Positions 31,224 through 40,121 of a DNA stretch of 64,000 bases are shown here, one piece after another. This DNA comes from Myxococcus hansupus. Lineage in GTDB: Bacteria > Myxococcota > Myxococcia > Myxococcales > Myxococcaceae. Every line of letters starts with the position of its first letter. Position 1 is the first letter of the stretch. The translations under genes and the position numbers were made by a program. Where the stretch lies: assembly GCF_000280925.3 (NCBI RefSeq), contig NZ_CP012109.1, forward strand, positions 2,748,501 to 2,812,500, read 5' to 3'. The notes under the pieces were generated by a model. It had not been told where the DNA came from. It saw only the letters and a program-made list of their open reading frames with translations, and ran no database searches.

Positions 31224-32216
31224 TCACGGCGCGGGCATGAAGTCCGCGTAGACGGCGGCGTGGTCGGAGCCGCCAAAGCCGCCACGCGGATCGCGCATGG
31301 CCCGGAACGAGCCGGGCACATACGTTCCGCCTCCGCGCGCCAGGTACAGGTGGTCGATGGCCTGGCGCTCGCCGTAGAACGAATACGTCCACGTCTCGTC
31401 ATCTGGCCGGTCGCTGGCGACGCGCAGCAGTGCGCCGTCGCGCTCCAGTGCTTGGATGGGCTCCGAGCCCGGCACGTCGTTGAGGTCGCCGCCCAGCACC
31501 ACCAGCGCGTTCGGCGTTGCCTGGGCGACGCCCGCGATGATGTCGCGTGCGGCGGCGGCCTCCGCGAAGCGTCGCCCCGGGTCGTCGCTCGACTTGGAGC
31601 GGAAGTGCGCGGAGAAGACGATGACCTGCTTGCCGTCCACGTCCAGGTGGACCTCCAGCAGCTCCCGCGCGAAGCGCGTCTCCGTGCCATCCGGCCGCCA
31701 CAGCGTGCGGTGGCGGTGGCCTCGGACGCGGGTGATGGGATGGACGGAGATGACGGCCACGTCCACCGACGCCGGCGCGCCCGTCTCGCCCAGCTCCGAG
31801 TAGCCGAAGCGGGGGAGGCGGGACGTCAGCGCGTCCAGTGATGCCTGCGTCTCCACCTCGGCGAGCAGCACCACGTCCGCGTTCAGTCGTGAGACGGCGG
31901 CGGCGAGCCGGTCCGCCTTCAATCCGAACTCGGAGGGCGTCGGCAGGGCCTCGTAGTTGCTCCCGCCGCACGCGCCGGAGTCGCACACCGTGTCGAAGAA
32001 GCGCTGCACGTTGTACGCGGCGATTCGGACGCTGCCCTCGAGCGCCGAGTCGGGCGGCTCGGGGGTGCCACAGCCCGTGCCCACGCAGTCGTCCGGCCCG
32101 GGGACTGGTGGCGTCCAGCGCCCGTCGCATCCGGACAGCGACAGGAAGGCACCCAGCAGGACGGCGGCCTGGGTTCGCGTGATGCGCCAGCGGGTGGGAC
32201 GGAAGGCGAGTGACAT
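31224..32216 (-). CDS. Endonuclease/exonuclease/phosphatase (EEP)-family lipoprotein
   Basis: 330 aa from the ATG at 32216; longer readings lack a signal. A lipoprotein signal ends in the lipobox LSGC (about residue 29), so it is predicted to be anchored outside the cytoplasm. EEP-family catalytic motifs are all present: RIAAYNVQRFF (Asn), LLAEVET (Glu), FSAHFRSKSSDD, VVLGGDLNDVPGS (Asp/Asn) and GGSDHAAVYA (Asp/His). Such metal-dependent hydrolases cleave phosphodiester bonds, in DNA, sugar-phosphates or sphingomyelin. An exported lipoprotein form suggests extracellular DNA or phospholipid degradation, suited to a predatory or scavenging life (inference). Two extra cysteine clusters (CVGTGCGT, CDSGACGG) may form disulfides. 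Confidence 0.88.
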   Translation of the reverse strand: MSLAFRPTRWRITRTQAAVLLGAFLSLSGCDGRWTPPVPGPDDCVGTGCGTPEPPDSALEGSVRIAAYNVQRFFDTVCDSGACGGSNYEALPTPSEFGLKADRLAAAVSRLNADVVLLAEVETQASLDALTSRLPRFGYSELGETGAPASVDVAVISVHPITRVRGHRHRTLWRPDGTETRFARELLEVHLDVDGKQVIVFSAHFRSKSSDDPGRRFAEAAAARDIIAGVAQATPNALVVLGGDLNDVPGSEPIQALERDGALLRVASDRPDDETWTYSFYGERQAIDHLYLARGGGTYVPGSFRAMRDPRGGFGGSDHAAVYADFMPAP

Positions 32217-32392
32217 GCGCGCGGCAGCGTACTCCAACGCGGCGCGGGCGCGGCCGGGCAGGCGGGCACAGTGTTCGCGGAAGGCTTCTTGGCCCCACGC
32301 GCATTGCTTCCAGGAAAGGGTTACGGCATGACAGCGAGTGCGGTGGGGCGCGTGCCCGCCGTACGGACCGGGCACGGAGGCGCGTTCGCGGC

Positions 32393-32539
32393 ATGTTTTT
32401 CGAGATTCTCATTGGCGCCGCGGTGATGACGCTCATCACCGTGCTCTTCACCGGGCCCGGGATGTGGAGCTCCACCTGGGGCTACCGGAAGAAGGAAGGC
32501 AAGGGCACCTCCGAGCCTCCCGACGACGCGAAGAAGTAG
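32393..32539 (+). CDS. Small single-pass membrane protein
   Basis: 48 aa from the ATG at 32393. A hydrophobic segment FFEILIGAAVMTLITVLF spans about residues 2-20. A WGYRKKEGKG stretch and an acidic/basic tail ending DDAKK follow. No ribosome site stands out, and the family is not recognised. It is supported mainly by the sensible membrane-plus-charged-tail design and its fit between neighbouring genes; it could be a chance ORF. Confidence 0.45.
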   Translation: MFFEILIGAAVMTLITVLFTGPGMWSSTWGYRKKEGKGTSEPPDDAKK

Positions 32540-32553
32540 TCGCCGGACGTTCG

Positions 32554-32859
32554 TTATTGGCAGATGCCCGGGCAGTCGGTCGCTCCCGAGCCCGGTGAGC
32601 AGGCATCCAGCGGGTCGTCGACGCACCGCGTCCCCGGTGACACGCAGCTACCGTAGAAGCCGCCACAGCACTCGGTGTAGCCCGCTGGCACGTCGCACGG
32701 CGTCGCGAAGCTTCGGCACTCGGCGCCGCCCGCGGCTGGACGGGCGAACACGAGCACCTGCGCGCAGCCCTCTCCGTTGTTGTCGTCGGAGCCCCCACTG
32801 CAAGCCGTCAGCAGCAGGGAGGCCAGGGCCGCGCCCGCGGCCATCATGAGTCGGTCCAT
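32554..32859 (-). CDS. Small Cys-rich lipoprotein
   Basis: 101 aa. The start is followed by a lipoprotein signal peptide with lipobox LLTAC (Cys at about residue 20) and a Ser/Gly/Asp linker (SGGSDDNNGEG). The Asp is at +5 rather than +2, compatible with outer-membrane sorting. The mature part holds ten further cysteines in pairs (CAQV ... CRSF, CDVP ... CCGGFYGSC, CVDD, CSPG, CPGIC), typical of small disulfide-rich myxobacterial lipoproteins. Function unknown. It is convergent with the 48-aa gene. Confidence 0.75.
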   Translation of the reverse strand: MDRLMMAAGAALASLLLTACSGGSDDNNGEGCAQVLVFARPAAGGAECRSFATPCDVPAGYTECCGGFYGSCVSPGTRCVDDPLDACSPGSGATDCPGICQ

Positions 32860-32914
32860 GTCCGCTATCTGGCCAGGACCGGCCCGCGCGTCCAGCCCCC
32901 CACACGCTGGGATG

Positions 32915-34383
32915 TCATTCCACGAGCATCCGCTTCACGGGGGCGGGGTCCACAGCGACCATCAACGGCCGGGTGAAGTTGCTGAACGACACCAGCGCCT
33001 GGCCTGGGGCGAGCCTTGAGACGCGGTTCCACAGGCTCTCATCGATGCTGCCCGCTGTCTTCTGCATGCGGGCGATGACCGAGCTGTCCGCGATTTTGTG
33101 GATGACGAAGTTGTTGATGAGGCCCAGCACCTCGTTAGGGAGATGCTGTGGGAGCTGGGTGACGAACACGAGCCCCATCCACCGTTTGCGACCCCGCTTG
33201 GCGATCTTCGCCACCTGCTCGAAAAGTACGGGCATCTGGGAGATGCGGTGGGTGGAGAGGAACTCGTGGGCCTCCTCGATGATGATGAGCACCGGCGTGA
33301 CGGAGCCATCCTGGGTGTTGGCTGATTGGTAACGAGCTTCTTGGGCCTCCTGAAGGCCCCGGAGGATGTCAGCGATGACCAGATTGTTGAGCTGTGGCGA
33401 ATCGGTGTCCGACAGGTCGATGACGGACACTCGGCCCGGTGCGAGCATGGAGTCGTAGTCCACCGCATCCACGTTGCCCACGTCGAAGATGCCCAGGCGC
33501 CGGAGGCGGTGCAGTTTGCTGGCGAGCGCCTTCCAACTCACCTCGTGGCGGCTGCTCTGCGCCATGACCCGGGCCATCACCCGGCCAAAGCTGCTCCGGA
33601 ACTCAGTGCGAAGGTTCAACCCACGGGAGGGGGCCTTGGCCGTGGTATCGGGTTCGGCCTCCTGCTCATCCTGATCTTCCAGTAGCGATGCTTGTTTCCT
33701 TGGAGTCGATCGCGACTTTCCTCGCGTTTCGGATTTCCCCTCGTCGCTCAAGCTGTAGATGTACGCGCTGACGACATCCAGCACGTGATCAATGGTCATC
33801 TGAGGGTAGCCCGTGGACAGTTCATCGACATCGAGGACCTGACGACGCTCCTCCTCCGTCTGAGGATAGATCTTGAAATCCTCCATCAGGAGCTTGGTGA
33901 CGTCATAAGCCTTGAGGAACCGTTCTTGCTGCGCGTCCGACATGTCTAGAATCTCTGCCAGCGCGTAGGGCGAGAGGCTGGAGAACTTGAGTGAAAATGC
34001 GCGCCTGTTCCGGTGTCTCGGGTTGAGGCTGTCGCGGCCGATGAGGTGGTGGATGTGCAGGTCTTTAACGCCCTCTGCCTTCTGACCGCGGCGACGGAGT
34101 GCCTCGATCATTGCGGCATGGTCCGTCGGCTTGTCGACGTGGGTGTACTCACCTTCGACGTCGAAGACGATGGTGGCGATGCCCTGCTGCTGGGCACGGT
34201 GGATGAGTGTGGCGACGGTGGTGGATTTGCCCCCGCCTGTCGTTCCAATAATGCCGGTGTGGCGGGGGAGGATGGATTTGTCCCGAGGATTGAGGCGGGC
34301 CTCCATCTTGTCGTAGCCCACGACGAGGCCTAGGCACAGGTCGCCGCCTGTCCCGAGCACCCGTGCGCTCTCCTCATCGTCTA
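32915..34383 (-). pseudogene. HerA-like ATPase, C-terminal part, cut off by the IS630 insertion
   Basis: This is the 3' 488 codons of a HerA/DUF87-type DNA translocase. It starts mid-protein at DDEESARVLGTGGDLCLGLVVGY. It holds Walker A IGTTGGGKSTT, a Walker B-like LIIIEEAHEFL, the VTQLPQHLPNEVL sensor segment, and the FVIHKI motif typical of HerA. HerA forms a hexameric ring that drives DNA through and works with NurA nuclease in end resection or in defence complexes. The N-terminal HAS-barrel lies across the insertion at 35602-36558. An open frame runs on from the element into this part, so a fusion starting inside the IS is possible, but the HAS-barrel needed for NurA contact would be missing. 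Confidence 0.85.
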
Positions 34384-34410
34384 AACCACCGCTCGTGATT
34401 CTCGATCGCG
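34384..34410. repeat. Left terminal inverted repeat of the IS630 element, next to TA at 34382-34383
   Basis: It begins AACCACCGCTCGTGATTCTC and ends CGCG. Compared by eye with the reverse complement of 35575-35601, it matches at 19 of 27 positions, including the first three bases and the TCTCG block. Confidence 0.85.
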
Positions 34411-34475
34411 GTTGGTGAGCGGGCGGGCGCGCGGGGCGCGAGGAAGAGGCAGGGGCGCATCCCGTTCGGCTCTGT

Positions 34476-35573
34476 GTGCGCAGAAGACCAGGAATCGGAA
34501 AGGCCCCGCCCAGGGATAAAGGTAGGCTGCGTCTGTCGCGGCTGCAGCGCCGCTCCCTCATTCGCTGGGGAGAAAGGAGCGGCTGCCCGCTCACCCTGCG
34601 ACGGTGCATGGCGGTGGTGGGAGTGTCGCGCGGCAAATCGTGCAGCGAGGTCGCACGTGCGCTGGCGTGCGCCACCTCCACCGTCGTCTCCGCGGTCAAT
34701 CGTTACCGGACGGGACGGCGTAAATCCCTGGTGGACCGCAGGGCAGCCAATGGCGAGGCGAAGGTGGATGAGCGCTTCCTCGCCATTCTCTCGCGTGTGC
34801 TGGCAGGTACTCCCGAAGAGGTGGGCTGGTGCCGCCCGACGTGGACGCGGGAGTTGCTCGCGCTGGAGATGGAGCGCCGGGGCTTGGCGCGGGTGTCGGT
34901 TGCCACCATGGGCCGTGCGCTTGCCACCCTCGGTGCGAGCCTGAAGGCGGCCAAACCCGTCGTGGGCTGCCCTTGGCCGGGCTGGAAGCGGCGCCGGCGC
35001 CTCTTCGAACTGCGGTGCCTGGAAGCCTATGCCCAGTGCGACGAGCCGGTCCTCTACGTGGACGAGGTGGACATCCACCTCAATCCGAAGGTGGGACGCG
35101 ACTGGTGTCTGCCCGGCCAGCGCCGGGTGGTGCTCACGCCAGGCAACAACAAGAAGCGATACTTGGCTGGCGCCCTGGACTCGAAGACGGGCCGCCTCAC
35201 CTGGGTGGAAGGCAAGTCGAAGGCCAGCTCCCTCTTCATCCAACTCCTTTGGCGCATCTGCGGTGAGTACCGTGGCGCGCCACGAATCCACCTCATCCTG
35301 GACAACGCCTCCATCCACAGCAGCAAGAAGACGAGGAAGGCGCTCGAGCAACTCGACGGTAGGATTGTCCTCCACTTCCTGCCGCCTTACTGCCCGGACG
35401 CCAATCGCATTGAGCGCGTCTGGCTGGACCTCCACTCCAACGTCACCCGCAACCATCACTGCCGCACCCTCCAGAAGCTGATGCGACGCGTCCAGGCATA
35501 CCTGCTCGCTCGCAACGCCCAGCGGCGTGCCAGTCCTATCCTCCGCAAGGTCCATCTACGGCGCGCCGCCTGA
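34476..35573 (+). CDS. IS630-family DDE transposase
   Basis: 365 aa from a GTG start (others possible a little downstream). The N-terminal part is a helix-turn-helix DNA-binding region (about residues 40-85, CMAVVGVSRGKSCSEVARALACATSTVVSAVNRY in outline). A linker follows, then the DDE catalytic core: D in LYVDEVDIHLNP, D in HLILDNASIHSS, and E in PDANRIERVWLDL, the spacing expected for IS630/Tc1-mariner proteins. The frame is intact, so the element may still be active. It reads on the strand opposite to the interrupted HerA gene. Confidence 0.92.
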   Translation: MRRRPGIGKAPPRDKGRLRLSRLQRRSLIRWGERSGCPLTLRRCMAVVGVSRGKSCSEVARALACATSTVVSAVNRYRTGRRKSLVDRRAANGEAKVDERFLAILSRVLAGTPEEVGWCRPTWTRELLALEMERRGLARVSVATMGRALATLGASLKAAKPVVGCPWPGWKRRRRLFELRCLEAYAQCDEPVLYVDEVDIHLNPKVGRDWCLPGQRRVVLTPGNNKKRYLAGALDSKTGRLTWVEGKSKASSLFIQLLWRICGEYRGAPRIHLILDNASIHSSKKTRKALEQLDGRIVLHFLPPYCPDANRIERVWLDLHSNVTRNHHCRTLQKLMRRVQAYLLARNAQRRASPILRKVHLRRAA

Positions 35574-35574
35574 A

Positions 35575-35601
35575 CGCGTGCGAGATTCGTGATCGGCCGT
35601 T
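35575..35601. repeat. Right terminal inverted repeat of the IS630 element, next to TA at 35602-35603
   Basis: Its reverse complement begins AACGGCCGATCACGAATCTC and ends CGCG, pairing with the left end. The transposase stop codon lies 2 bp inside it. Confidence 0.85.
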
Positions 35602-36558
35602 TAGTAGGAAGACAGGGCTTTGGGGACGCGGCCGGAAGCGCGGCGGCTTGAGTGAGCCGTCGACCTCCTCGCCAACAATCTCGATTTCCGCCCGGCCATG
35701 GTAGTCGAATGTATAGGCCAGCTTCTTTCCGTGAGTGACGACTCCAATGGCCATGGTGGAATTCGCGGGCACTGCGTTGGGTTCCGCGAACGGGCCCCGA
35801 ACGACGACACCGAGGTACGCCCGGCGGTCATCCTTCGACTTCACCCGCACCAAGGTCTGTGACGCGAGCAGGTGCAAATCCTCGCGCGTCAGCAACACCG
35901 TGATGAGATTGTCCTGGCTGGACGTCACGTCGAAATGAGTGAAGCCCACGGCCGCTTCCAACTCGGGATCCACCTGCGGACCGGACTTCGCTTGCTGCTT
36001 GAGCGCATCCAATTCATTCAGGAGCGCTGGAGGTGTCCGTTGGACGACCTCCTTGTCTGCTGAAGGCGGGGGCACTGGGCCGTGCCCTTTGCCATTCATC
36101 ATGGGTGTGGGGGCCACGGAGACGGGCCGATGTTGCCCGTTCAATCCCCCAGGAGGAGGAGGGCGATTGCCGCCGGAGGGCGGGCGCATGGTGGTGGAGG
36201 GGGGCGGCTGCGCAGCGCCTGATGGCATCCCGGGATTCCGAGCTGGGGGCGCGGGTGGACCCGCTTTCGGAGTGAACGGGACGCGGGCCTCGCCACCAAC
36301 TGGTGGATTCACCGGCCGCGAACCCGCGCCGGCTCCACTGGGTTGGGAGGCCGTAGCCGCATGGCTGTTCGGTCCAGGCGGGACTTGCGCCTGGCTGGAG
36401 CTCGTGCGCCGGTAGCCTGGCGGAGGCTCTCCCCAGTTTCCGGGCACCTCAGGTGCATTGAAGGCCCGTGAAGGTGTCTTGCCATTGATAGGAGGTTGAC
36501 CTCGGGCTGCGCCTGCACCTGGCGAGCGTTGTCCCTTGCCGTCGTCAGCGATGCTCAT
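35602..36558 (-). pseudogene. HerA-like ATPase, N-terminal part (HAS-barrel), truncated by the IS630 insertion
   Basis: 319 codons from the ATG at 36558, which has an AGGAGAG ribosome site 5 bases upstream, up to the target TA. Residues ~1-165 are low-complexity and Pro/Gly-rich. About 195-319 form the HAS-barrel domain that caps HerA and binds NurA (NLITVLLTREDLHLLASQTLVRV, RRAYLGVVVRGPFAEPNAV, YTFDYHGRAEIEIVGEEVDG). The frame runs ~20 residues into the element before stopping. It starts 12 bp after the NurA-like gene, as the last gene of the operon. Joined to 32915-34381 it would encode an 807-aa protein. Confidence 0.85.
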
Positions 36559-36570
36559 GACTCTCCTGAC

Positions 36571-37758
36571 CTAATGGCGTTTGATGTGCTCGTTGAAGAA
36601 CTGAAGACTGGCGCCCGCCTGCGCGTAGGCGTCGTGTACCAGCCCCATAAAGCCGTCTTCACCAAAAGCACTGCGGCACGATGCCTCCGCGACGTCGAGC
36701 AGCATGGGGAAGCCGCGCTCGGGCCGGAGAATGCTATCCGCCATTGCGATGCGCGCGGCGAGGTGGGCATGGTCACGGTGCGCGTAGAACGAGCGCGGCG
36801 GGGTTCGCTCGGAGGCGCGAAACACGCCAGAGATGACCTCCGGGCAGCACTCGCTGACGAAGTTCGCCGCGAAATGCTGGCTGCGGTCCCCGTACTTCCA
36901 ATTCCCAATGACCCGTCGTCCAAACCGCTCGAGCGTCTCGAAAATGATGTACTCGCCAGCCTGAAGCGCATGGCCAATGGTCAGGATTCCGCGCTCTTCT
37001 AGTGCGCTTGGAACAAAGACGAACTTCTTGTGCTGTTTGATGAGGCGCCGGAGAACGCTCAGTGATGCTCGTAGAAGGCTCATGTATCCTGAGCCGGTGA
37101 GCAGTTCCTGTGCACACGGGTTCCCATGCCCGATGCGCCACTCTGCCTCGGATTTGTCCACCAGTACAGCCCGCTCGGCATAGGTCCGGATGCCCCGGCG
37201 GGCGAGTTTGGACAATGACTCCTTGCGGGGACTGGCGGAGCGCTCCATGCGGAGGTCGATGCAGTCCATCGCGGCCTGCACGGGATCCACGCTCTGGTCA
37301 GACATCTCCTTGCGAAAGAGTCGTTGAGAAAACGTGCCTGACGTGCCGCCGTAGCTCACTGCGGCGATTCCGATTTGAGTGATGCCGAGAGGCAGACTTT
37401 CATGACTGGTCGAGACACTGTTGACAGCCTCAACTCGCCCAGAAAAGAGCAGGCTTTGGTGGACGGTTGCCAGTTCGTCCGATGTGGCTCTGTAAACTCC
37501 CGCTTCCTCGGCGCCCCCGCCTGAGTTGGGGAGAATCCGAGGAAGGACGCGCTGCCGGATGATGCTCCGGACGGCGCTCTCCTTGTCCACGGCGTTGGAG
37601 ATCTCTTGCCGGAAGCGCGCCATGATGCTGGCCAGATCGAGCCCTTGCGACCACGTATCGAGGTCGAGGGTCATCAATAAATCTTCGCCGAACGCATCCC
37701 GGAAATCCTCGTCACCAAAGAGGTCGGCGCCGTCGTCGTTATCGAAGTCCTGCGCCAC
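36571..37758 (-). CDS. NurA-like nuclease-family protein (HerA partner)
   Basis: 395 aa from a GTG with an AGGAGG ribosome site 5 bases upstream. The assignment is by position and layout. It sits immediately before a HerA gene. It has an early strand (VEAVNSVSTSH) where NurA normally carries the catalytic Asp in a DGS-like motif, and later FVFVPSALEERGILTIG. It ends with RPERGFPMLLDVAEASCRSAFG, resembling the NurA C-terminal 'R-G-F/Y-P-x-x-L-x-x-A' block. The expected DG motif reads VN here, so catalytic residues may be altered or placed elsewhere. If NurA, it would trim DNA ends threaded by HerA. It lies 2 bp after the metallopeptidase gene, so expression is coupled. Confidence 0.55.
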   Translation of the reverse strand: MAQDFDNDDGADLFGDEDFRDAFGEDLLMTLDLDTWSQGLDLASIMARFRQEISNAVDKESAVRSIIRQRVLPRILPNSGGGAEEAGVYRATSDELATVHQSLLFSGRVEAVNSVSTSHESLPLGITQIGIAAVSYGGTSGTFSQRLFRKEMSDQSVDPVQAAMDCIDLRMERSASPRKESLSKLARRGIRTYAERAVLVDKSEAEWRIGHGNPCAQELLTGSGYMSLLRASLSVLRRLIKQHKKFVFVPSALEERGILTIGHALQAGEYIIFETLERFGRRVIGNWKYGDRSQHFAANFVSECCPEVISGVFRASERTPPRSFYAHRDHAHLAARIAMADSILRPERGFPMLLDVAEASCRSAFGEDGFMGLVHDAYAQAGASLQFFNEHIKRH

Positions 37759-37760
37759 GG

Positions 37761-38489
37761 TTACCTCCTCTCCTCGCCAAGGAACTGGATGATGGAAAAC
37801 GGCTGTGGACGCTTGTGGGGGCGCAGCGTACGCAGATAGCCACGGGCTTTTTCCTCGGGGAGTCCGAAGTACCGAGACAACAATGCTGCTCCCTCATTCG
37901 CTGGGACGGATTGCAAGAGTTGGCGAGCATGTGTCGCTGGGGCGAGAATCTCGAGCGCAAGCCGATCCGCGCGTCGCTCGGCCTCAGCTACGGCGCCAGA
38001 AAGAATGTGCCCGGTTGGATTGCGGTCCATGAGTTTGATTTGGACGCCCAAGGGGACTTGTCCGAGGACCGACGACACTTTCTCGTCCAGATTGGCGCGT
38101 CGTTTCCCATTGAGTACCGGAAGGATTCCTTCTCCGAAATGATGCAATGCGCGCTCACGGGGGAGCAGGTGATCCAGCACGAAGTGTGCGACCTCGTGAG
38201 CCACGGTGAATCGTTGCTCGGCTTCAGTGTCCCCGGTGTCATGGAAGAGGAGCGCCGAGCCCGCCCTTGCGACCATGCACCCATACAGTTCGCGCTCGGC
38301 ACCAGGAATGGTCCGACGAACGCCTCGGAGCAAAATCCAATCCAGGACGTGTCGGGTCGTCAATCCAGGAACGGGAACAAGTTCCACGTGCAGCCTTTTT
38401 TCTGCCTCTGCGGCAATGTCCCGAGGAAACGCCGTGAGGTGCTGCATCCCACTGAGGGACATGGCTTCATCCAACCAATGACCAATCAA
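37761..38489 (-). CDS. ImmA/IrrE-type metallopeptidase
   Basis: 242 aa from a TTG whose TTGA overlaps the stop of the upstream gene; an ATG at 38462 is an alternative. The zinc-protease motif FTVAHEVAHFVLDHL (HExxH) is centred at about residue 99. Downstream AVAEAERRADRLALEIL supplies the third zinc ligand region (E-x-x-A-D). This is the ImmA/IrrE layout (DUF955). Family members cleave XRE-type repressors: ImmA acts on ICEBs1 ImmR, and IrrE/PprI acts on DdrO after DNA damage in Deinococcus. The upstream gene encodes just such an HTH protein, so regulated repressor cleavage controlling the HerA/NurA genes is a reasonable inference. Confidence 0.85.
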   Translation of the reverse strand: MIGHWLDEAMSLSGMQHLTAFPRDIAAEAEKRLHVELVPVPGLTTRHVLDWILLRGVRRTIPGAERELYGCMVARAGSALLFHDTGDTEAEQRFTVAHEVAHFVLDHLLPRERALHHFGEGILPVLNGKRRANLDEKVSSVLGQVPLGVQIKLMDRNPTGHILSGAVAEAERRADRLALEILAPATHARQLLQSVPANEGAALLSRYFGLPEEKARGYLRTLRPHKRPQPFSIIQFLGEERR

Positions 38490-38863
38490 GGGATGTTCTC
38501 GTCGTCGTGAGTGCGGTCCCGCGCCGCGAGCTGAATCGTCGCATTCTCGGCGGCAAGTTCCTCGTCTGATTCCGCGTTTAGGGCCGTGATGACTTCGACA
38601 TGCCGGAGCACGCGAATGAGTTGCCGGAGTTCAACCGAGAACTGCTGGGCGACCGCCGCCGACTGTTCCGCGAATGAGTCGCCCACTGGACGTCGGCACA
38701 AGGACATCCACTGAAGCACGTCGGGAGTGCATCCCAGTTTCTGGGCCAAGGCAGAGGAGGTCATGCCTTCAATCTCAAGGTAGCGCTCGAATGCATGGCC
38801 GAGCATCCAGTCCGCCCTGGTGCTCCGTTTGGCCGCCGCTTCGAGCCAATCAGGAATTGACAC
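38486..38863 (-). CDS. XRE-type helix-turn-helix protein
   Basis: 125 aa from the GTG at 38863, which has a GGGAGG ribosome site 6-7 bases upstream; a longer frame begins at 38881. An HTH lies at about residues 30-60: FERYLEIEGMTSSALAQKLGCTPDVLQWMSLCRRP. The rest is helical (VAQQFSVELRQLIRVLRHVEVI) with an acidic tail. It is probably a DNA-binding regulator and the natural target of the ImmA/IrrE-type protease encoded next. It overlaps the sigma-factor gene by 14 bp and the protease gene by 4 bp. Confidence 0.7.
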   Translation of the reverse strand: MSIPDWLEAAAKRSTRADWMLGHAFERYLEIEGMTSSALAQKLGCTPDVLQWMSLCRRPVGDSFAEQSAAVAQQFSVELRQLIRVLRHVEVITALNAESDEELAAENATIQLAARDRTHDDENIP

Positions 38864-39449
38864 TGACAACCTCCCTTCCAAATCGCTGTAACCACTTGAT
38901 GATGCGATCGCGATGCCGCTTCACTTCACGTCGAACGTCGAGCGTGGGGAGATGGCTCAGGCCAAGCACCGCGCCAAGCCGTTGGGTCGACCTCTCACCC
39001 AGCAGAATGTGCGCCAGGACCGCTCGGTCGAGCACCCCAAGGTCGGATTTTTCAATGCGGTCCACGATGCGGCGCGCCTCCACTGCATCCTCCAAGCTGT
39101 CCTTCGGAGACCTCCCCAAGAGTTCGAAAAGGACACCGAATTTTTCTTCACGGAGGACCCGCCTGAGGGTGGCGCGGTACCAGTCCGTGAGCGTGTTCTT
39201 GGCGGATTGCGTCAAGTACGAGAGGAGGCTGCCCCGGTCCGGGTCAAAGCGTTCGGGCGCTTCGAGGTAGTCCATCAGTACGTCAATGGCCGCATCACGT
39301 GCTTCTTCGGGCGTGCACCTGCGTGCTCGAATCACCGTCGAAATGATGGGGCCCATGAAGAGCTCGAAGGCCTCCTTGTACGCCACTGACTCTTTCCGAA
39401 GGATGCGCGCATGCAGCGCGTTCTCCTGTTCCTGCATTGGATTCCCCAT
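38850..39449 (-). CDS. ECF-like sigma-70 family RNA polymerase sigma factor
   Basis: 199 aa from the ATG at 39449 with a GAGGAG ribosome site 4-5 bases upstream. Region 2 is recognisable at about residues 25-95 (AIDVLMDYLEAPERFDPDRGSLLSYLTQSAKNTLTDWYRATLRR), including the aromatic -10-melting segment. Region 4 lies at about 125-190 (DRAVLAHILLGERSTQRLGAVLGLSHLPTLDVRREVKRHRDRI), with an HTH that reads -35 elements. No anti-sigma gene is seen. As first gene of the operon it may direct transcription of the operon itself, with the XRE protein and protease as controllers (inference). The leader 39450-40121 should contain its promoter. Confidence 0.8.
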   Translation of the reverse strand: MGNPMQEQENALHARILRKESVAYKEAFELFMGPIISTVIRARRCTPEEARDAAIDVLMDYLEAPERFDPDRGSLLSYLTQSAKNTLTDWYRATLRRVLREEKFGVLFELLGRSPKDSLEDAVEARRIVDRIEKSDLGVLDRAVLAHILLGERSTQRLGAVLGLSHLPTLDVRREVKRHRDRIIKWLQRFGREVVSVNS

Positions 39450-40121
39450 CCTGACTCCTCATCGGAAGTTTCCGCGCGCACCCCATTTACGTGTGCGTAT
39501 GTGCTCCTTCGGTGCCGTCCTGGCGAGTTCGACGGAGACGTGTTTCCGAGACATCCCAGATGGTTTCTGGAGTTCGTTCCGTCTGTCTGTACCTCCCAGG
39601 TGGTATTGCCTTGAACGCTTGTGCAGGTGAGTGTTGCGGCATCGCGACAGAGGCATCGAAAGGCTTCCGGTGTCTGTCGACATGCCGTGCCGAATACGTG
39701 CGCCTTCTGTTCAAAAAGATCACAAGGCAAGGGAGGGCTCAATACCTGTGGTCTGAAAACAACGGGGCGCGCTGCTCCCTGCTGCGAAGGGGGCGGACCC
39801 ACTTCATTAGGAGTGCGTTGGAATGACTCGGTGCAGTCATCGCGCACCCGCATGGGCAGACGCCGCAAGTCCATACCTCTCTGGAGGTAAAGACAGTGAA
39901 ATCACGGGGCGGCATCGTGCGAGCGATGCGGGGCGTGGTCCCGCGCGGCCCGGGATGACTCAGGGGGGACGTCCTGGACTCAGCGCCGAGCTGGGGCAGG
40001 GGGCTGCCTGGCTTCAGGCGCGAGCGCGCGGGACGGGAACGACGGAGCCGGGCGGGACGGGAGCAGCGGGCCCGCCCGGCGTCTGGGGAGAGGTGCGATC
40101 ACTCCTCACCTGCGTAGGGGT
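39450..40121. other. Long intergenic region upstream of the sigma-factor operon
   Basis: About 670 bp with no convincing gene. Several open frames occur, but none has family features. A possible 20-codon leader ORF on the + strand at 39896-39958 follows a good GGAGGT site but has no stated function. The left half is visibly less GC-rich than the right, so the island border may lie near 39880-39960. The hairpin at 40047-40080 belongs to the chitinase transcript. Confidence 0.5.
40047..40080 (-). terminator. Strong GC hairpin downstream of the chitinase gene
   Basis: A perfect 10-bp stem GCCGGGCGGG / CCCGCCCGGC with a 14-base loop lies 41 bp past the stop of the minus-strand chitinase gene. 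No T-run follows on the minus strand, so it may act as a transcript-stabilising or weak terminator structure. Confidence 0.45.

What the first reader, a model, noticed from the sequence alone, without database searches (positions are those of the whole stretch)
32915..39449. Sigma factor - XRE HTH - ImmA/IrrE protease - NurA-like - HerA operon: a candidate regulated defence or DNA-processing system
Five genes on one strand overlap or lie within 12 bp of each other. ImmA/IrrE proteases are known to cleave XRE repressors, in one case in response to DNA damage. HerA-NurA resects DNA and related HerA pairs act in phage defence. Adding a dedicated sigma factor would make a self-contained sensor, switch and effector cassette. 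I know of no described system with this exact composition.
Basis: partly seen in the sequence, partly recalled or inferred. Interest (0 to 1): 0.8.

Follow-up and report, generated by a model that had tools for sequence, protein, structure and literature searches.

The report
Myxobacterial HerA operon with degenerate NurA
A five-gene set shared across one family of predatory soil bacteria pairs a DNA-pumping motor, and a partner that looks like a DNA-cutting enzyme with an incomplete cutting site, with its own gene switch; in this strain a jumping gene has broken the motor gene.

Summary
The five genes are real and in the stated order, but HerA is split by a recent IS630 insertion, so this strain's copy is probably dead. 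Relatives carry it intact. The set is confined to Myxococcaceae-type genomes and co-occurs strictly: NurA-like and ImmA genes are found in the same 56 of 195 phylum genomes. The middle protein has a NurA fold, but no row of 23 keeps both catalytic aspartates: the first is lost in 22, the second in at least 18. It is nevertheless under purifying selection. Upstream of sigma lie a conserved palindrome and a promoter-like element, whose full patterns occur only at this locus in the genome. It very probably equals MXAN_4535-4539 of M. xanthus; published proteomics (PMC12288472) shows sigma and HerA-like protein falling, not rising, after mitomycin C. I read it as an autoregulated sigma/HTH/ImmA switch (CapH/CapP-like) driving a HerA translocase with a probably non-cutting NurA-fold partner. 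Defence against foreign DNA is plausible but unproven: the flanks read are not obvious defence islands and inheritance looks mostly vertical. New variant of a known kind.

The parts
38850..39449 (-). ECF-like sigma factor, 199 aa (probably MXAN_4535 in M. xanthus)
   Evidence: Sigma70_r2 34.6 bits over cut-off 24; TIGR02937 47.3 bits over cut-off 42.9, residues 25-188
   Evidence: AF2 pLDDT 83.9, six helices; weak lambda-repressor-like matches; conserved LA..LGC...L..L.LCR.P core
37761..38489 (-). ImmA/IrrE-type metalloprotease, 242 aa (probably MXAN_4537)
   Evidence: Peptidase_M78 25.8 bits over cut-off 22; PADLOC capP E 3.7e-8; HExxH and E..AD invariant in 16 of 16 rows
36571..37758 (-). 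NurA-fold protein with incomplete catalytic site, 395 aa (probably MXAN_4538)
   Evidence: no family hit; VIA Z 10.2 to Sulfolobus NurA 2ygk; motif loss
35605..36558 (-). HerA N-terminal part (proline-rich stretch and conserved region before the ATPase domain), cut by the IS; the frame runs on into the IS to 35536
   Evidence: continuous with the ATPase part in one frame in relatives
34381..35604 (+). IS630 element, transposase 34476-35573
   Evidence: second copy 100% identical over 1,224 bp
32915..34380 (-). HerA ATPase part (with the N-terminal part probably MXAN_4539)
   Evidence: DUF87 E 3.4e-21; PADLOC HerA E 1.7e-28, mad8 E 2.3e-25
39506..39533 (-). promoter-like element GTCGAACTC-N13-CGAA upstream of sigma
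   Evidence: strict form in 23 of 27 upstream regions; single exact match in the genome
39585..39605 (-). palindrome TACC-N8-GGTA followed by N-AGAC, candidate operator
   Evidence: 22 of 27 upstream regions at -153 to -160; genome search
39874..39894 (+). second, oppositely oriented copy of the palindrome element
   Evidence: one mismatch; an opposite-facing copy in 5 of 27 upstream regions: the window and L031-L034

Best explanation
A clade-specific, autoregulated operon. Shown here: strict association of the genes in Myxococcaceae-type genomes, NurA fold of the fourth protein, loss of at least one canonical catalytic Asp in every row read, intact protease and ATPase motifs in relatives, conserved upstream elements, and a broken herA in this strain. 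Inferred: the sigma factor transcribes its own operon from the GTCGAACTC-N13-CGAA element; the HTH protein binds the palindrome; the ImmA-type protease cleaves the HTH protein when a DNA-derived signal such as ssDNA appears, as CapP cuts CapH and PprI cuts DdrO. HerA forms an ATP-driven dsDNA pump, and the NurA-fold protein caps it as a partner that probably does not cut by NurA chemistry; it would unwind, pull or strip DNA, or hand it to another nuclease. Purpose, least certain: an accessory genome-guarding function, most likely against foreign DNA. Because the palindrome lies about 70 bp upstream of the candidate promoter and the products fall after mitomycin C, the HTH protein may be an activator whose cleavage turns the operon down.
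For: NurA-like and strong ImmA matches in the same 56 of 195 genomes; HTH protein in those 56 plus one with a partial copy; gene order in 30 of 30 loci, HerA in 29. NurA fold: VIA ranks 1-9, Z 10.2 to 5.8, next unrelated 4.0. First Asp lost in 22 of 23 rows; second position S/P/T in 23 of 23, or Asp in 5 of 23 if read one residue on; no row has both; dN/dS 0.07-0.29. HExxH invariant in 16 of 16, Walker A and B present in 21 of 21. Upstream elements. In-frame HTH::NurA-like fusions beside sigma. Published fall of sigma and HerA-like protein after MMC and joint fall of MXAN_4536 and 4538 transcripts in a masABK mutant.
Against: Protease cleavage, HTH binding and sigma use of the promoter are untested. 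The AF2 model is of middling quality (pLDDT 62.6), Foldseek gave no hit at E <= 0.001, and profile comparison with six NurA proteins was not significant. Asp at residue 251 in 5 of 23 rows could be the second catalytic Asp. Other conserved His/Asp/Glu residues might form a different active site. The HTH fold match is weak. The bare palindrome TACC-N8-GGTA is not rare (47 in 475,245 bp of 26 loci, these sites included). The equation with MXAN_4535-4539 is by gene order and description. The masABK array changes were not restored by complementation.
Confidence: 0.45

Rival explanations
1. Classical anti-phage or anti-plasmid defence: a damage-responsive CapH/CapP-type switch turns on an active HerA-NurA nuclease that degrades invading DNA.
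For: CapP-like protease; HerA resembles PADLOC HerA and mad8 models; CapH+CapP control immune operons (PMC13373217 passages); losses, decayed copies and an IS insertion; a DUF6119 gene near 3 of 26 loci.
Against: Incomplete NurA active site in 23 of 23 rows; MMC lowers rather than raises two of the proteins; present in 25 of 27 genomes of the genus; neighbours are mostly metabolic and shared between genomes; no match of the NurA-like protein in plasmids, phages or viral contigs.
Confidence: 0.2
2. DNA-repair cassette: the operon supplies double-strand-break end processing, with HerA and the NurA-like protein working beside SbcCD/Mre11-Rad50-type enzymes.
For: HerA-NurA resects ends in archaea and Deinococcus (PMC9960219, PMC12977600 passages); an SbcC/Rad50-like gene lies within 5 kb upstream in 4 of 26 loci, with a metallophosphoesterase gene read beside it in three.
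Against: HerA-like protein and sigma fall after MMC while RecN, RecA and SbcCD1 rise in the same study; incomplete NurA active site; absent from 139 of 195 phylum genomes.
Confidence: 0.15
3. DNA-transfer pump, like the TdtA/NurA-like pair needed for DNA donation in Thermus transjugation.
For: TdtA, an ATPase of the HerA type, is encoded next to a NurA-like protein and both are needed for efficient donation (PMC5365140 passages).
Against: I saw no integrase or relaxase beside the intact operons read, though annotation there was partial; the Thermus operon in the passages seen has a restriction enzyme and no sigma or ImmA gene.
Confidence: 0.07

Closest known systems
HerA-NurA DNA end-resection complex (Sulfolobus, Thermococcus, Deinococcus)
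   Same: HerA-family ATPase with intact Walker motifs beside a NurA-fold protein, NurA gene immediately upstream of HerA
   Different: catalytic Asp motifs incomplete in every row; no detectable sequence similarity to NurA families; long proline-rich HerA N-terminus; sigma/HTH/protease head
CapH+CapP, ImmR/ImmA and DdrO/PprI repressor-protease pairs
   Same: HTH gene followed by an ImmA/IrrE-type protease with HExxH; best PADLOC match CapP
   Different: a sigma factor precedes the pair; HTH protein too divergent for family models; published direction after MMC is down for sigma and HerA
HerA-effector defence systems (HerA with DUF4297 or SIR2 partners) and MADS Mad8
   Same: HerA ATPase next to a second subunit; PADLOC HerA and mad8 matches
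   Different: partner is a NurA-fold protein; no other mad or DUF4297/SIR2 family was matched by the operon proteins; partner names other than mad8 are recalled
TdtA/NurA-like pair of Thermus ICETh1
   Same: NurA-like gene immediately upstream of a HerA-family ATPase
   Different: mobile element with restriction enzyme and integrase there; none seen here

Membership tests
NurA nuclease | NurA (RNase H-like) fold | tested here: met
   VIA ranks 1-9: eight chains of entries titled NurA or HerA-NurA and 1zup, a putative RNase H-like nuclease of T. maritima; Z 10.2-5.8, next unrelated Z 4.0; model pLDDT 62.6
NurA nuclease | catalytic Asp of motif I and motif II (D58, D133 in S. islandicus) | tested here: not met
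   motif I Asp in 1 of 23 rows; motif II position S/P/T in 23 of 23, or Asp in 5 of 23 one residue on; no row has both; mapping by fold and motif, not by significant alignment
NurA nuclease | sequence match to family models | tested here: not met
   no Pfam, NCBIfam or PHROGs hit; PF09376 finds nothing in the own genome
HerA ATPase | HerA central domain with Walker A and B | tested here: met
   DUF87 76.8 bits over cut-off 23.2; motifs in 21 of 21 relatives. NCBIfam HerA equivalog cut-offs (800 bits or more) are not reached
ImmA/IrrE (M78) protease | HExxH zinc site | tested here: met
   25.8 bits over cut-off 22; invariant in 16 of 16 rows
CapH+CapP regulatory pair | XRE-fold DNA-binding partner beside the protease | tested here: inconclusive
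   gene order fits; fold matches weak, CapH Z 4.2, ImmR Z 3.7
CapH+CapP regulatory pair | ssDNA-stimulated cleavage of the HTH protein | not testable with these tools
   needs proteins
ECF sigma factor | sigma-70 family match with region 2 and region 4 | tested here: inconclusive
   TIGR02937 over cut-off, residues 25-188; region 2 by Pfam; region 4 not found by Pfam
MADS | eight-gene set including a methyltransferase (recalled) | tested here: not met
   only the HerA-mad8 match among the operon proteins
Anti-phage defence system | location in defence islands or mobile elements | tested here: inconclusive
   flanks mostly metabolic and conserved; no formal enrichment test; no plasmid or phage match for the NurA-like protein
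Anti-phage defence system | protection against phage | not testable with these tools
   needs experiment

The most novel reading that the evidence does not exclude
A family-wide HerA motor whose NurA-fold partner has become a non-cutting subunit, run by a sigma/HTH/ImmA circuit that DNA damage turns down rather than up: a HerA-pseudonuclease DNA pump with a new kind of three-gene switch.
Probability: 0.27. Interest if true: 0.75.

Novelty: new variant of a known kind. Interest (0 to 1): 0.58.

Why it matters
HerA motors pair with many effectors in repair and defence. A conserved pairing with a NurA fold that has lost canonical nuclease residues would show that the NurA shell does something besides cutting, and would make that testable in M. 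xanthus, a genetically tractable, harmless species that very probably carries the operon as MXAN_4535-4539. The sigma/HTH/protease head is a compact regulatory layout with conserved upstream sites, and published proteomics already points to an unexpected direction of response to DNA damage.

Tried and rejected
Simple damage-induced repair cassette: weakened by the MMC proteomics. Membership of MADS: only the HerA-mad8 resemblance. DdiA (MXAN_0633), the M. xanthus XRE regulator of the damage response, is another gene, beside pomXYZ and not predicted to be in an operon. A wider sigma or HTH regulon: one-mismatch matches to the promoter pattern are at control level (20 hits in all against 21 for the reversed pattern) and the full palindrome pattern occurs only at this locus. 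Sequence-level proof of NurA homology: profile comparisons failed, the PDB profile search found no NurA, and a PDB search with the canonical-motif NurA of L060 found none either. Reading the 'Comamonas sp. KCTC 72670' locus (L033) as transfer outside myxobacteria: its flanks match the M. xanthus context, so a mislabelled record is likelier. A formal defence-island enrichment test was thought of and not run.
Full report
What is there. The window lies in a 9,490,432-base single-contig genome at 2748501-2812500; close relatives of the locus are labelled Myxococcus. On the minus strand five genes follow one another: sigma 39449-38850, a small HTH protein 38881-38486, an ImmA/IrrE-type protease 38489-37761, a NurA-like protein 37758-36571 and HerA from 36558. 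Two-kilobase bins over 32001-40000 are 0.60-0.65 G+C, against 0.67-0.74 for most of the rest. HerA is interrupted by an IS630 element at about 34381-35604 whose transposase reads on the plus strand. A second copy, 100% identical over 1,224 bp, lies at 6435765-6436988, so the insertion is recent. It parts the HerA N-terminus from the ATPase domain, so this strain's system is probably inactive.

Distribution. The NurA-like protein is found in 56 of 195 genomes held for the phylum, all in one family, and in 25 of 27 genomes of the genus. A profile search added no convincing genome; the five additional ones have best E 0.08 to 0.38. Strong ImmA matches (E 2.5e-67 or better) occur in the same 56 genomes; five other genomes have short matches at E 7.5e-9 to 3.7e-6. 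The HTH protein occurs in those 56 plus one genome with a partial copy. In 30 loci from 30 genomes, own included, sigma, HTH, ImmA and NurA-like stand in this order, and HerA follows in 29; in L026 the contig ends. The genome-contig scan gave 26 loci (of 49 pattern matches), labelled Myxococcus, Pyxidicoccus, Corallococcus, Archangium, Hyalangium, Citreicoccus and MAGs, plus one labelled Comamonas whose flanks are those of M. xanthus. Of the 26, twenty carry both HerA halves in one frame; L042, which that script flagged, has one 735-aa frame; four end at a contig end before HerA; L055 is a decayed second copy. The NurA-like protein matched no record of the plasmid and phage collections at E 0.1 and no viral contig (59 pattern matches, none confirmed); the ImmA protein matched no plasmid at E 0.01.

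The NurA-like protein. No Pfam, PADLOC, NCBIfam or PHROGs family matches it. An AF2 model from 23 sequences has pLDDT 62.6 and pTM 0.58. Foldseek ranks Sulfolobus NurA first, at E 7.4e-3, with nothing at E 0.001 or better. VIA-align gives ranks 1-9 to eight chains titled NurA or HerA-NurA and to 1zup, a putative RNase H-like nuclease of T. maritima, with Z from 10.2 (rmsd 5.8, 203 aligned) down to 5.8; the next, unrelated entry has Z 4.0. Published work names D58, E116 and D133 of S. islandicus NurA as critical (PMC4351679, passages) and D49 of T. kodakarensis NurA as essential (PMC12977600, passages). Six NurA proteins (one from a held genome, five from plasmids) keep A/S-[IV]-DG and DGPLA in 6 of 6. 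In the present family residue 113, in the first site, is N10 A5 S3 Y2 H1 T1 D1 in 23 rows, followed by a LP..I.Q.G pattern that recalls NurA. In the second site FVFV is followed by S11 P8 T4 at residue 250; residue 251 is Asp in 5 rows (L036, L037, L046, L047, L055), which could be the second Asp if the alignment is shifted by one. No row has both. The single D113 belongs to L048, a divergent groundwater MAG that reads AVDG: an apparent intermediate that supports the motif assignment. Profile-profile comparison did not reach significance, so the residue mapping rests on fold and motif. The gene is not decaying: dN/dS is 0.07-0.29 in four pairs, against 0.05-0.23 for the HerA ATPase part and 0.30-0.49 for sigma; dS in the window pair is near saturation.

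The switch. The protease has an invariant HExxH and a later E..AD motif in 16 of 16 rows, and its best PADLOC match is CapP at E 3.7e-8. The HTH protein is confidently predicted as six helices; many listed structure matches are lambda-repressor-like, among them CapH, ImmR and DdrO, but all are weak and the top VIA row is a homeodomain protein (Z 4.9). CapP is activated on binding ssDNA and cleaves CapH (PMC13373217, passages); ssDNA likewise stimulates PprI cleavage of DdrO (PMC10904395, abstract and passages). Upstream of sigma two elements are conserved: a palindrome TACC-N8-GGTA, 153-160 bp before the sigma start and followed by N-AGAC, in 22 of 27 upstream regions (23 of 27 by a looser pattern), and GTCGAACT-N14-CGAA, 82-89 bp before the start, strict in 23 of 27. 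The bare palindrome is not rare in itself (47 in 475,245 bp of the 26 loci, these sites included), but the longer pattern has only two hits in the genome at up to one mismatch, both in this intergenic region, and none for the reversed control. The promoter-like pattern has one exact hit; with its 19 one-mismatch hits it is at the control level of 21. The four outer pairs of the palindrome are complementary in 23 of 23 rows; pair 7 changes together (T-A for C-G) in three rows and pair 5 becomes C-G in four, while pairs 5, 7 and 8 are often unpaired.

M. xanthus data. The gene beside sigma in the window is a GH19 class I chitinase with lectin domains. In M. xanthus 'Chitinase, class I' is MXAN_4534 (PMC4158809, passages), MXAN_4535 is an 'ECF-sigma factor' and MXAN_4539 a 'HerA-like DNA helicase' (PMC12288472, abstract, section 5 part 1 and passages). 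The numbering fits sigma, HTH, ImmA, NurA-like and HerA; the equation is an inference, as no DK1622 annotation was held. In that study HerA-like protein falls (log2 -2.3) at 5 h of mitomycin C and is not significant at 10 h; sigma falls (log2 -2.5) at 10 h and is not significant at 5 h; neither changes significantly without LexA. In a masABK deletion MXAN_4536 and MXAN_4538 transcripts fall 60- and 34-fold (PMC3546991, passages); the array changes were not restored by complementation. Both suggest joint regulation, and neither shows induction by damage.

Context and turnover. In M. xanthus-type loci the upstream neighbours are an NRPS gene, an MFS exporter and the chitinase, and a small putative lipoprotein and shared genes lie downstream. 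In many other loci a LuxR-type gene, a haem-oxygenase-like gene and a GNAT/FeeM-like gene lie within 5 kb upstream: 13, 12 and 12 of 27, window included. L037 has LuxR and haem-oxygenase-like genes upstream and M. xanthus-type genes downstream, which suggests one ancestral locus. An SbcC/Rad50-like ATPase gene lies within 5 kb upstream in 4 of 26 loci (L038, L039, L041, L043); a metallophosphoesterase gene was read beside it in L039, L041 and L043, and Pfam confirmed the domain in L041 and L043. Of six second copies looked at, L074, L075 and L076 have the five genes; L072 and L073 (the latter the same locus as L055) are sigma plus an in-frame HTH::NurA-like fusion without ImmA or HerA; L077 has a truncated NurA-like gene, no ImmA match, and HerA. 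So the operon looks mostly vertical but dispensable and prone to loss. Canonical NurA (PF09376) is absent from the own genome; two other DUF87 matches exist there.

Interpretation. The shown parts support a self-contained regulated HerA module. Function is inferred: a HerA pump with a NurA-fold cap that probably does not cut, controlled by a sigma/HTH/protease circuit. Defence is plausible by analogy with CapH/CapP-controlled immune operons and HerA-effector pairs, but context and the damage data do not favour a classical damage-induced defence. I found no paper that describes this operon as a system in the searches, which cover open-access papers only and of which several listed only a part of their hits.

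Noticed in passing
L072 (G115:C80:360000-372000), L055/L073: Second copies in which the HTH protein is fused in frame to the NurA-like protein beside a sigma gene, without ImmA or HerA; L072 sits next to the small lipoprotein that follows the operon in M. xanthus-type loci while an intact operon lies about 57 kb away.
   Followed up: partly
L105, L106, L107: An extra HTH gene lies just upstream of sigma, giving HTH-sigma-HTH-ImmA-NurA-HerA.
   Followed up: no
L101, L102: HTH gene matches without sigma or ImmA next to the LuxR-type gene that often flanks the operon: possible remnants at the old locus.
   Followed up: no
L038, L039, L041, L043: SbcC/Rad50-like ATPase gene (with a metallophosphoesterase gene in the three of them where it was read) close upstream of the operon, recalling archaeal herA-nurA-mre11-rad50 clusters.
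   Followed up: partly
L039, L049, L056: A DUF6119-type gene lies near the operon; Pfam confirmed for L056 only.
   Followed up: no
L060, L067: HerA-like (DUF87), canonical-motif NurA and DNA methyltransferase genes side by side in a myxobacterial-family MAG and on a haloarchaeal plasmid: a possible separate defence cassette.
   Followed up: no
window 39874-39894: Second, oppositely facing palindrome element in the intergenic region, also present in L031-L034; no convincing gene starts there.
   Followed up: partly
L033 (BNCN01000007.1): Record titled Comamonas sp. KCTC 72670 carries the operon with M. xanthus-type flanks; probably a mislabelled Myxococcus genome.
   Followed up: no
window 42875-63937: One open frame of 7,020 codons with repeated NRPS-like modules upstream of the operon.
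   Followed up: no
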